The position numbers were made by a program, and so were the translations under genes. The notes under the pieces are model-generated. The model saw only the letters and a list, made by a program, of their open reading frames with translations. It was not told where the DNA came from and did not search any database. Below, one piece after another: positions 4,447-45,836 of a stretch of 64,000 bases of DNA; position 1 is the first letter of the stretch; every line of letters begins with the position of its first letter. The stretch covers positions 1,054,001 to 1,118,000 of the forward strand of contig NZ_JIAD01000001.1 in assembly GCF_000688015.1 (NCBI RefSeq). Reading direction: 5' to 3'. This DNA comes from Eubacterium sp. AB3007 (GTDB lineage Bacteria > Bacillota > Clostridia > Peptostreptococcales > Anaerovoracaceae).

Positions 4447-6702
4447 CTATTTCTTGACGAATTCCGAGTAGATGGCCTTGATGGCTTCTCGGAAGTTGTT
4501 CTCTTCGATTCCGATCAGCATACTGATCCCATCCACGCCATAGTCAAGCAGCTTCACGTTGATCTGCTCAGCCGCCAGCGCTGTCAGGATCCTCACGCTG
4601 ACTCCCGGAGAGACTGCCATGTGCCGGCTGACGATGGCGATGGTCGCAAGACCATCCGTGATGCTGACTTTGTCCGCGTCGATGGCCGTCCGAAGCTTCT
4701 CGCTGAGCTCACGCTTACGCCCCTTCACCTGCTCTTCATCCACCAGAACATTCAGGGTGTCCACTCCAGCCAGCATGCTGTTCACAGTGATCTCTTCCTG
4801 GGCAAACACCTGGAGAAGCTTGGTGCGAATGTCGCTGTCTGCGTTCAGACGATCCTTCTCCACCATGATGCTGGCATGCCCGGTCTCCCCGGAGATGCCG
4901 GAGATCTTCAGGATAGAAGGATAGTAGTCAGCGTTCTTTACGATGAGGGTTCCCGCCTCTTCCGGCTTATCAGTGTTCCGGATATTCACCGGAATACCCA
5001 CCTTGCGTACCGGATAGACTGCATCCTCGTGCATCACCTCTGTCCCTCGTGCAGTGATCTCCCGCAGTTCCTTGTAGGTAATCACAGGTACAGTCAACGG
5101 GTTGCGCACGATCCCCGGGTCTGCCATGAGGAGTCCGCTGACATCCGTCCAGTTCTCGTATACATCTCCCTTCACTGCCGCCGCTACAAGCGCGCCGGTA
5201 ATGTCCGATCCTCCCCGGGAGAAAGTACGGATCCGGCCCTCTGTATCCTTTCCGTAGAATCCGGGCACCACCGCGTTATCGTGGGGATCCATGACAGTCG
5301 CGATCCTCGCCACTGTTTCCTTATATTGCAGGTCCCCTTTCTCATCGAAGAGGATCATCTCTTCCGCATCCACAAAGTCATACCCGAGATAGGCTGCCAT
5401 GATCTTGGCAGCCAGGTATTCTCCCCGGCTCACCAGGTAGTCCTCTCCGGCGCCGTCGCGGTAGGTATTACGGATCCGGTCGATCTCGCTGTCAAGATCA
5501 AAATCCAGTCCCAGTCCCCGCACGATGCTTCGGAATCGGGTGATGATCTTGATCATCATGGAATCAAACTGTCCCTCTTCCGTGGCCTTGATGAAAAGAT
5601 CGGTGACCTTGATATCTTCCTTGTTGCGCTTTCCGGGAGCGGACACCACAACATAGTGCCTCGCCTCTTCCTCCCGCACGATGGCTGCCGCCTTCTTGAA
5701 CTGGGCCGCCGTCGCCAGCGAGGTCCCGCCGAACTTCACCACCTTGAAATCCGCCTTGCCGTCCAGCGGTGCCAACAGGTCCTCGCTGCTGATCTGCTGG
5801 ATATCGTAAGGGGTAGACTGGTACACAAAGTAGTTCAGCCAGTTGGAATAAAGCAGATTGGCGCAGGACCGCCACCGCACGATGGGTGTCTTGGTGTCAT
5901 CATCGTCCGGGAAGTAGTTCTTGGGGACCTTCGGATGGATGCCCGCCGCCTTGTCCCGCTCGTACTCATTCATCAAGGTATTCCAATCGTACTCCGAGTG
6001 GCCCATGATGAAGATCTGGCGATCGTTGGTGCTCTTCACGGCGAACACCCCTGCCTCATCCGAGCTGGCCACGATCTTCAGTTCCGGCACCGCCTCGATA
6101 TCTTCCCGGTAGTTGGTAGTGTTCCGGGAATGAGGTACATAGAAGGTGTCATCGAACCCGCGGAACAGCATCCCGTTCTGATAGTCCAGATGATGCTCGT
6201 ATACACCCGATAGTTTCTCCGGGAGCAGATGTTTCTGGATCCCGTAGTGGTAGTACAGCGCTGCCTGGGCCCCCCAGCAGATGTGGAAGGTACTATGGAC
6301 ATGGCTCTTGCTCCACTCCATGATCTCACAGAGCTCATCCCAGTATTCCACCTCCTCGAACTCCAAAAGCTCGATGGGCGCACCAGTAATGATCATCCCA
6401 TCGTAATATCGGTTTCGAACATCCTCAAATGTCTTGTAAAAGGCGATCATGTGCTCCTGGGAGGTATGTGCCGCCTTATGGCTGCTGGTCTGCAGAAGCT
6501 CCAGCTCGATCTGCAGCGGCGTGTTTCCAAGCAATCTGGTGAGCTGTGTCTCCGTATCGATCTTGGTGGGCATCAGGTTCAATAATAGGATATGCAGCGG
6601 CCGGATATCCTGGGTGATCGCCCTGGAATCCGTCATGACAAACACGTTTTCCTTGGTCAGTGTGTCTACCGCCGGCAGATTGTTCGGTACTTTGATTGGC
6701 AC
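4447..6702 (-). CDS. Bifunctional homoserine O-acetyltransferase-aspartate kinase fusion (MetA-LysC)
   Basis: One uninterrupted 751-codon frame. Residues 1-302 are a full-length MetA homologue. Cys142 (HICWGAQ), His235 and Glu237 (GHSEYDW) are the catalytic residues at standard numbering, and Glu111 in TGAPIE predicts acetyl-CoA rather than succinyl-CoA use. After a linker of about 15 residues, residues 318-751 form a complete aspartokinase: KFGGTS (323-328) starts the kinase fold, SAPGK follows, and two ACT domains close the protein. The protein would join the first step of the aspartate pathway (aspartate to aspartyl phosphate) with the committed step of methionine synthesis (homoserine to O-acetylhomoserine). 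AGGAGG precedes the ATG. MetA and LysC are normally separate; known aspartokinase fusions involve homoserine dehydrogenase or LysA. Confidence 0.93.
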
Positions 6703-6798
6703 TTGTACGGCCTCCTGTCTAATATATATACAAAGTATAGTTTATCACAAACCCTGCACTTTCTCAACCCTCTCGCCCAAAGCCCGGCGGCCTGTCTC

Positions 6799-25742: not shown

Positions 25743-25871
25743 TATGAAAAAACACTCTTAAAGGCGGAAGTGGAACCCGCCGCCATAGAAGCGGGGGATC
25801 CTCTGGCGCTCGTTATGAAACAAAAACTCTGGAACAAAAAATCCCAGAGCAATATGTTTCTCAACTATTCT

Positions 25872-25982
25872 ATCTTCTCCCATCCAGACTATACTGTCGG
25901 CTCCGGAATCTCACCGGATCATGCCTCTCGGCTCGCGGGCTGTACCGCCGGTAGGGAATTTCACCCTGCCCTGAAGATCTAT
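25872..25982 (-). promoter_or_regulatory. FMN riboswitch (RFN element)
   Basis: The minus strand carries the conserved RFN blocks: CTTCAGGGCAGGGTGAAATT, CCCTACCGGCGGTA, GCCCGCGAGCC, GATCCGGTGAGATTCCGG, GCCGACAGTATAGTC and GGATGGGAGAAG, in order. It binds FMN and turns the riboflavin operon off through the downstream terminator. Confidence 0.97.
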
Positions 25983-45659: not shown

Positions 45660-45836
45660 TACATCGACGGCCGGGCTGACCTGGTCTTTGCCCCCACACT
45701 TGCCTTGACCGGGATTTTCCCGAGGACTTACATCTAGAGCGCGCCATGATCACCGCGGCCTCTTGCTCACGGCTTACGTGGATCCCTTTGCCCGCGCCTG
45801 GCCTGGATTTTCAACCACAGACCCCGGCCGTCACTG
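45660..45836 (-). ncRNA. Large structured RNA, raiA-motif-like candidate
   Basis: About 170 bases on the minus strand, closed by a long stem: GGCCGGG (45829-45823) with CCCGGCC (45675-45669), extended inward by GGTCT/AGACC. Inside are the hairpins CACG-TAAGC-CGTG (45780-45768), AGAG-CGCG/CGCG-CTCT around GTGATCATGG, and CGGGA-AAA-TCCCG, joined by unpaired runs such as GGGCAAAG occurring twice. It has its own near-consensus promoter. No open frame fits. Size, stand-alone promoter and position upstream of hpf/raiA recall the raiA-motif noncoding RNA of Clostridia. I cannot check the consensus here, so identity is inference. A leader for the phosphatase gene is the alternative. Confidence 0.7.

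What the first reader, a model, noticed from the sequence alone, without database searches (positions are those of the whole stretch)
4447..6702. In-frame fusion of homoserine O-acetyltransferase (MetA) with aspartokinase (LysC)
A single 751-residue protein holds a complete MetA with catalytic Cys142, His235, Glu237 and the acetyl-specific Glu111, and a complete aspartokinase with two ACT domains, joined by only about 15 residues. MetA and aspartokinase are not adjacent steps. A fusion would link pathway entry to the committed methionine step and could let ACT-domain feedback reach the methionine branch. I know of AK-homoserine dehydrogenase and AK-LysA fusions but not this one.
Basis: partly seen in the sequence, partly recalled or inferred. 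Interest (0 to 1): 0.8.

Follow-up and report, generated by a model that had tools for sequence, protein, structure and literature searches.

The report
MetA-aspartokinase fusion enzyme
One Clostridia protein joins the enzyme that starts the whole aspartate amino-acid pathway to the enzyme that commits it to methionine; the join is real, conserved and found again in other bacteria, and it looks like a methionine-linked entry point to the pathway that databases, where they name it, name as only one of its two halves.

Summary
On the minus strand (6702-4447) one 751-residue frame carries a complete acetyl-type MetA and a complete aspartokinase (AK) with two ACT domains, joined by about 17 residues. 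It is no artefact: 34 of 112 family genomes in one sample hold it full-length without a stop, plus 2 disturbed copies, and every domain is under purifying selection. It is not unique: I saw 291 database clusters pairing these domains, named (where named) as one half.

A second form without ACT occurs in Peptoniphilus and other lineages, in operons metY-[metA-AK]-(hom)-(asd) behind SAM riboswitches or T-boxes with a methionine (AUG) specifier. In the window's genome a second, unfused AK sits beside thrC. Best reading: a methionine-branch aspartokinase tied to MetA, working like E. coli MetL with a different partner. Against strict dedication, 3 of 9 ACT-less genomes show no other AK match.

The window's form keeps its ACT pair under selection. 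Its ACT1 has lost the signature of unfused AKs, and none of 19 ACT-bearing loci shows a methionine RNA leader. A re-specialised methionine or SAM sensor is possible but unproven. Ten paper searches listed no description of the fusion. Activity, inhibition and cross-talk are untested.

The parts
4447..6702 (-). whole coding sequence of the MetA-aspartokinase fusion, 751 aa, GTG start, TAG stop
   Evidence: full-length homologues
6711..6716 (-). AGGAGG ribosome-binding site, 8 nt before the GTG start
   Evidence: sequence
5803..6702 (-). MetA (homoserine O-acetyltransferase) domain, residues 1-300
6370..6372 (-). codon of Glu111, acetyl-specificity residue (role recalled)
   Evidence: invariant in 58 rows
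6277..6279 (-). codon of catalytic Cys142 (role recalled)
   Evidence: invariant in 58 rows
5992..6000 (-). codons of His235 and Glu237 (and the residue between); roles recalled
   Evidence: invariant in 58 rows
5752..5802 (-). linker, residues 301-317; poorly conserved, low-confidence in the model (307-315 pLDDT under 50)
4933..5751 (-). aspartokinase catalytic domain, residues 318-590, with KFGG, SRGE, RGGSD and WTDV motifs
   Evidence: Pfam AA_kinase; NF006540; motif residues invariant in 58 rows except S425 and G497 (90% or more)
4450..4932 (-). regulatory ACT pair, residues 591-751; ACT1 diverged from unfused AKs, under purifying selection

Best explanation
The gene encodes a bifunctional enzyme: an acetyl-type homoserine O-acetyltransferase (MetA) and an aspartokinase on one chain. 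In this lineage it works as a methionine-branch aspartokinase isozyme. The kinase half makes aspartyl phosphate, and the separate Asd and homoserine dehydrogenase turn it into homoserine. The MetA half then acetylates homoserine for MetY (O-acetylhomoserine sulfhydrylase). Because the two halves are one protein, entry into the pathway and commitment to methionine rise and fall together in a 1:1 ratio, while a second, unfused AK beside thrC serves threonine. SHOWN: architecture, conservation, motif conservation, purifying selection, the second AK beside thrC, and the SAM-riboswitch/Met-T-box operons of the ACT-less relatives. INFERRED: both activities, the division of labour between the AKs, and that the window's ACT pair senses something other than lysine.
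For: Fusion in 16 of 17 genomes of the genus (14 intact, G007 split between frames, G012 with an insert; G011 has a lone MetA), and full-length in 34 of 112 family genomes plus G007 and G012. All 17 genomes with the ACT-bearing fusion (16 of the genus plus G026) also have an unfused AK (partial in G010). MetA and kinase motif residues are invariant in 58 fusions, 8 of them ACT-less, except S425 and G497 (90% or more). dN/dS: MetA at most 0.030 (14 of 17 pairs calculable), kinase at most 0.129 (11 of 17), ACT1 at most 0.113 (13 of 17), ACT2 at most 0.111 (11 of 17) (pairs share rows). ACT-less relatives lie in metY-[metA-AK]-(hom)-(asd) operons. Of 8 such loci with a readable leader, 7 have a SAM riboswitch (L068, L069) or T-box (L053, L055, L070, L230, L231) above Rfam's cut-off; L215 has a T-box by eye only. 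All six T-boxes read GAA-N-AUG. An unfused version, metY-metA-AK(no ACT)-hom(no ACT), sits behind a SAM riboswitch in L056. The three unfused ACT-bearing AKs of the same class whose flanks I labelled (L158, L232, L233) have thrC nearby. One 762-residue ACT-bearing-type fusion directly follows metY (L080), 1 of 8 labelled loci of L072-L080 with at least 1.38 kb upstream. The genome has MetY, Asd, two homoserine dehydrogenases without a Pfam ACT hit and two S-methyltransferase-family genes. MetL of E. coli, also methionine-branch, is described as ACT-less and insensitive (passage of PMC12925634).
Against: In 3 of 9 genomes with an ACT-less fusion (G059, G176; G754) the fusion is the only match, so there it may be the sole AK and not a dedicated one. 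These are multi-contig genomes and a distant AK could be missed. In L057/L058 another class of AK with ACT domains lies between metA and hom, with thrC divergent, so neighbourhood does not always separate branches. The window's fusion is not in an operon with other methionine genes: its neighbours are an M29 peptidase and an MFS transporter, and no methionine RNA leader precedes it. The ACT pair is retained, unlike MetL. G282 has a lone MetA besides the fusion. No activity is measured; the names of both halves rest on homology.
Confidence: 0.72

Rival explanations
1. Cross-domain allostery: the ACT pair has become a methionine or SAM sensor, and its signal reaches the fused MetA as well as the kinase, so that one binding event closes both the entry and the committed step.
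For: ACT1 has lost the signature of unfused AKs: G624 5 of 43 against 31 of 34; E634 5 of 43 against 34 of 34; E641 7 of 43 against 34 of 34; H642 5 of 43 against 31 of 34; P644 0 of 43 against 32 of 34. It has its own R626 (39 of 43 against 0 of 34). It is under purifying selection. None of 19 ACT-bearing loci shows a methionine RNA leader, against 7 of 8 ACT-less loci (8 with one read by eye) (permissive threshold for 17 of the 19). A solved plant AK holds SAM together with lysine (2cdq title).
Against: Linker of low confidence and pTM 0.56, so no fixed docking of the halves is predicted. ACT1 is the least conserved of the four folded domains (mean identity 0.375 against 0.553 for the kinase). 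The leader/ACT contrast separates two groups of relatives and may be one historical event. Rfam's cut-off missed the L215 T-box, so leaders can escape it.
Confidence: 0.22
2. The fusion only fixes co-expression of two neighbouring operon genes; the halves work independently and the ACT pair, whatever it binds, governs the kinase alone.
For: Unfused metA and ACT-less AK exist in one operon (L056). The linker is variable (mean identity 0.27) and of low model confidence. Junctions differ: 17-20 residues in 43 of 43 ACT-bearing fusions and 5-6 in 6 of 6 ACT-less ones.
Against: Retention of the single chain across genera of a family in which 76 of 112 sampled genomes show none, and a parallel MetA-homoserine dehydrogenase fusion, suggest more than an accident.
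Confidence: 0.5
3. The ACT-less relatives' fusion is the general aspartokinase of its cells, merely placed under methionine control, and the methionine dedication of the window's form is over-read.
For: G059, G176 and G754 show no other AK match.
Against: G045 and G056 list a further AK, and all 17 genomes with the ACT-bearing form have an unfused AK; control of the sole AK by methionine alone would leave threonine and lysine exposed.
Confidence: 0.12
4. The kinase half is a dead sensor and only MetA is catalytic.
For: The fused kinase evolves faster than unfused AKs of the same 15 genomes (0.553 against 0.684 mean identity).
Against: KFGG, RGE, most of RGGSD, and WTDV are invariant in 58 fusions including 8 ACT-less ones, which have no sensor to keep.
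Confidence: 0.03
5. Sequencing or assembly artefact joining two genes.
For: None found.
Against: 34 of 34 full-length alignments in genomes without a stop; one-contig genome.
Confidence: 0.005

Closest known systems
AK II-homoserine dehydrogenase II (MetL) of E. coli
   Same: A bifunctional, methionine-branch aspartokinase beside other AK isozymes. Like the ACT-less relatives of this fusion it lacks ACT domains and is set at the level of gene expression (ACT absence: passage of PMC12925634; repression by methionine: passage of PMC10464499).
   Different: The partner is homoserine dehydrogenase, C-terminal to the kinase (order recalled); here it is MetA, N-terminal. The window's form keeps ACT domains.
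AK I-homoserine dehydrogenase I (ThrA)
   Same: Aspartokinase with ACT regulation fused to a later enzyme of the pathway.
   Different: Partner and branch differ; NF006959 stays far below its cut-off here (194.7 of 726 bits).
AK-LysA (aspartate kinase/diaminopimelate decarboxylase)
   Same: AK fused to a non-adjacent enzyme of a branch.
   Different: Lysine branch; NF006515 119.2 of 802 bits. This genome has no DHDPS match.
Clostridium acetobutylicum aspartokinase (PDB 3tvi)
   Different: Stand-alone, and with the ACT1 signature of the unfused AKs (EVGF, EHMPSG).
Stand-alone MetA (B. cereus 2vdj; T. maritima 2h2w)
   Different: Stand-alone.

Membership tests
Homoserine O-acetyltransferase MetA (NF047918) | model score above the curated cut-off | tested here: met
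   486.6 against 460.5 bits
Homoserine O-acetyltransferase MetA (NF047918) | Cys142, His235, Glu237 and Glu111 (roles recalled) | tested here: met
   present, invariant in 58 rows
Homoserine O-acetyltransferase MetA (NF047918) | uses acetyl-CoA and homoserine | not testable with these tools
   needs an assay
Aspartate kinase, PRK09034 class (NF006540) | model score above the curated cut-off | tested here: met
   454.8 against 434 bits
Aspartate kinase, PRK09034 class (NF006540) | kinase motifs KFGG, RGE, RGGSD, WTDV (recalled) | tested here: met
   invariant in 58 rows except G497 of RGGSD, 90% or more
Aspartate kinase, PRK09034 class (NF006540) | two ACT domains with fold intact | tested here: met
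   ACT_9; strands and helices of two ACT folds; alignment to 3tvi over 317-749
Aspartate kinase, PRK09034 class (NF006540) | ACT1 signature of unfused relatives (G624, F625, E634, E641, H642, P644) | tested here: not met
   5, 5, 5, 7, 5 and 0 of 43 fused against 31, 29, 34, 34, 31 and 32 of 34 unfused; a signature found here, not a published definition of the family
Bifunctional AK-homoserine dehydrogenase (ThrA/MetL) | homoserine dehydrogenase domain on the same chain | tested here: not met
   no Pfam homoserine dehydrogenase domain
Methionine-controlled AK operon (as in the ACT-less relatives) | SAM riboswitch or Met T-box leader | tested here: not met
   met for the ACT-less relatives, not for the window

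The most novel reading that the evidence does not exclude
In the ACT-bearing fusions the AK's ACT pair has been re-specialised from lysine/threonine to methionine or SAM and shuts both the fused kinase and the fused MetA. It is a protein-level substitute for the SAM riboswitch or Met T-box that controls the ACT-less form: two interchangeable solutions to one control problem in related lineages.
Probability: 0.2. Interest if true: 0.75.

Novelty: new variant of a known kind. Interest (0 to 1): 0.55.

Why it matters
Branch-dedicated aspartokinase isozymes are a textbook case of feedback design (ThrA, MetL, LysC). This adds another fusion partner, the committed methionine enzyme. It also offers a natural comparison between an RNA-controlled form without ACT and a form with ACT but no RNA leader found. 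It would correct annotation for proteins now named, where named, as MetA or AK only (291 clusters seen), and it offers tied modules for methionine production.

Tried and rejected
Artefact: rejected (34 of 34 full-length alignments without a stop; the 49 fusions were picked as single frames and do not test this). Conserved internal start giving a separate AK: rejected, only 11 of 49 have any start with a 4-nt Shine-Dalgarno core in the linker region; the window has one weak TTG at residue 310. Riboswitch above the window's gene: none at gathering, and no methionine family up to E 5; no shared leader in an alignment of 9 upstream regions. A permissive search of 16 ACT-bearing loci gave one weak T-box, in L004 on the strand opposite to the fusion (53.8 of 93 bits), so not its leader; L072 and L074 were searched at gathering only. 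A pattern for the T-box core missed 4 of 6 known T-boxes and was dropped; the GAA-N-AUG-G pattern found 6 of 6 and, upstream of ACT-bearing fusions, 1 of 19 (L045), without Rfam support. Decay of the ACT pair: rejected by dN/dS and by ACT_9 in 119 of the best 120 hits (P0120 lacks it). Lysine-pathway loss as the cause of the fusion: this genome has no DHDPS match, but 10 of 17 genus genomes do, 9 of them among the 16 with a fusion. One or two origins: left open. AK halves group together (SH-aLRT 85). MetA halves fall apart in the tree, but the AU test gave p 0.327 and, with other rows, 0.054. The first AK tree was rooted by a very long outgroup branch and I did not use its root. P0159, labelled as a Fusobacterium necrophorum MAG, was not followed up; the label may be a binning error.

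Full report

IT IS CONSERVED. Of 17 genomes of the genus, 14 hold the intact fusion; G007 has it split between two frames, G012 with an insert, and G011 a lone MetA instead. In a sample of 297 genomes of the order, 34 of 112 family members (my count of the table) align over the full length without a stop, plus G007 and G012; 6 of 185 genomes outside the family align over MetA and kinase only. The spread inside the family is patchy. In samples of 391 class and 398 phylum genomes, 8 and 4 genomes show rows over both halves; both tables were cut, so these are lower bounds. Protein searches scored about 8000 candidates each and list 120. In one search all 120 carry HTS and AA_kinase, 119 of them also ACT_9. 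In one search all 120 carry the pair without ACT. One search adds 51 clusters with the pair. Where a source gives a name, it is homoserine O-succinyl- or O-acetyltransferase or aspartate kinase; no listed name states both. Within 17 pairs of fusions dN/dS is at most 0.13 in every domain wherever it can be calculated.

A SECOND FORM WITHOUT ACT. Fusions of about 590-600 residues end after the kinase. They occur in Peptoniphilus asaccharolyticus, obesi, catoniae, indolicus and olsenii, in Anaerosphaera multitolerans and in many metagenomes (names as given by the sources). Their neighbourhood is telling: metY lies directly upstream, with homoserine dehydrogenase of about 330 residues and Asd downstream in L055, L069 and L070, Asd alone in L230, and metY alone among the labelled genes in L053, L068, L215 and L231 (Pfam check of L069 and L230/L217 genes). 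L056 is the unfused counterpart: metY, metA, a gap, then an ACT-less AK of 261 residues and a 328-residue hom. Leaders: SAM riboswitch in L056, L068 and L069, T-box in L053, L055 and L070, T-box in L230 and L231. L215 shows a T-box by eye that Rfam's cut-off missed. All six T-boxes have GAA-N-AUG at the specifier position, that is methionine. L054/L234 could not be judged because the contig ends inside metY. So an aspartokinase is under methionine/SAM control in these relatives.

AGAINST STRICT DEDICATION. Of 9 genomes in which I saw an ACT-less fusion (G045, G056, G059, G095, G128, G176, G343, G665, G754), three (G059, G176, G754) gave the fusion as their only match, so there it may be the only AK. 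G045 and G056 list another AK; for the other four further matches are counted, but their rows are not listed. In L057/L058 (G234, G174) an AK of another class with ACT domains lies between metA and hom.

THE SECOND AK. The window's genome holds one more AK, 42% identical, 437 residues with ACT domains, next to a divergent threonine synthase gene. The two other unfused ACT-bearing AKs of this class whose flanks I labelled, L232 and L233, also lie with hom, asd and thrC. All 17 genomes with the ACT-bearing fusion have an unfused AK too (partial in G010). The genome has no DHDPS match although all 14 control genomes ring, so lysine is an unlikely effector here. But 10 of 17 genus genomes do have DHDPS, so this is not general. 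MetY, Asd, two homoserine dehydrogenases without a Pfam ACT hit and two S-methyltransferase-family genes are present.

THE ACT PAIR. In 15 genomes with both proteins the fused kinase is less conserved than the unfused one (0.553 against 0.684 mean pairwise identity), and ACT1 is the least conserved folded domain of the fusion (0.375 against 0.543 in the unfused AK). This is not decay: ACT1 dN/dS is 0-0.113 (13 of 17 pairs calculable) and the ACT folds are intact. Positions near-fixed in 34 unfused AKs are lost in 43 fused ones, and the fused set has its own R626 (39 of 43 against 0 of 34). That these positions line the effector pocket is recalled from AK structures, not shown here. None of 19 ACT-bearing loci (window and 18 loci with at least 1.38 kb upstream) has a methionine RNA leader at gathering, nor the 17 searched permissively. 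ACT without leader and leader without ACT is therefore the pattern, but it separates two groups of relatives and could be a single historical difference.

ORIGIN. The MetA half of the ACT-bearing form is one clade inside unfused MetAs of its family and of Oscillospiraceae (SH-aLRT 99; 96), while ACT-less MetA halves lie elsewhere. Holding both forms together is not rejected (p 0.327) or borderline (p 0.054). The kinase halves fall on one side of a branch from 47 unfused AKs with support 85. Linkers differ: 17-20 residues in 43 of 43 ACT-bearing and 5-6 in 6 of 6 ACT-less fusions. One fusion with later change, or two fusions of related AKs, both remain possible.

A THIRD FUSION. L211 (763 residues) joins MetA to homoserine dehydrogenase, again after metY; three further clusters (P0241, P0243, P0244) and a partial copy (P0242) share these domains. 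MetA thus has been tied to upstream aspartate-pathway enzymes in more than one way.

MECHANISM. Most likely (0.72) the window's protein is a methionine-branch aspartokinase isozyme in fixed 1:1 ratio with MetA. AK and MetA are not consecutive, so direct channelling between them is not expected; Asd and homoserine dehydrogenase act in between. Whether the ACT pair senses methionine or SAM, and whether its signal reaches MetA, are open.

LITERATURE. Ten searches of 5.39 million open-licence papers listed no title or abstract start that describes a MetA-AK fusion (two searches were aimed at AK structure and riboswitches). I saw passages only of PMC12925634, PMC10464499, PMC13257386, PMC11206799 and PMC3228920; none describes it. 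Other listed papers were not opened, subscription papers were not searched, and two that I recalled were not held. PMC12925634 states that E. coli MetL lacks ACT domains and is not inhibited by the amino acids tested, which makes MetL the closest functional analogue of the ACT-less form.

VERDICT. Real, conserved, named by one half where named, not unique: a new variant of the known kind 'branch-linked bifunctional aspartokinase'.

Noticed in passing
L211 2635-4926 (-): A 763-residue fusion of MetA with homoserine dehydrogenase (no Pfam ACT hit), directly after metY; three further full-length clusters and one partial copy in the protein database.
   Followed up: partly
L056 1808-6496 (-): Unfused counterpart: metY, metA, a gap of about 640 bases, ACT-less AK (261 aa), 328-residue hom, behind a SAM riboswitch.
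   Followed up: partly
genome G000 (outside the window): No DHDPS (dapA) match in a one-contig genome although all 14 control genomes ring; also no match in 6 other genus members.
   Followed up: partly
L156 5810-6886 and L157 5369-6535: Two homoserine dehydrogenases in the window's genome, neither with a Pfam ACT hit.
   Followed up: no
L062 2806-5280: The fusion of G012 carries an insert with a repeated GNDG-type motif inside the kinase domain; its ORF is 824 residues.
   Followed up: no
L236 2875-5232: G011, same genus, lacks the fusion and has an Oscillibacter-like lone MetA beside metY: replacement by transfer or contamination.
   Followed up: no
L057 2113-5788 and L058 4249-7911: metA, then an AK of another class with ACT domains, then hom, as separate neighbouring genes in G234 and G174.
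   Followed up: no
window 45667-45831 (-) and 25868-25982 (-): raiA RNA and FMN riboswitch matches above Rfam's gathering score.
   Followed up: no
window 6720-6760 (-) with L003 and L004: A short stretch like TTTGTGATAAAATA....TTTGTAT recurs before the start in close relatives; perhaps a promoter.
   Followed up: no
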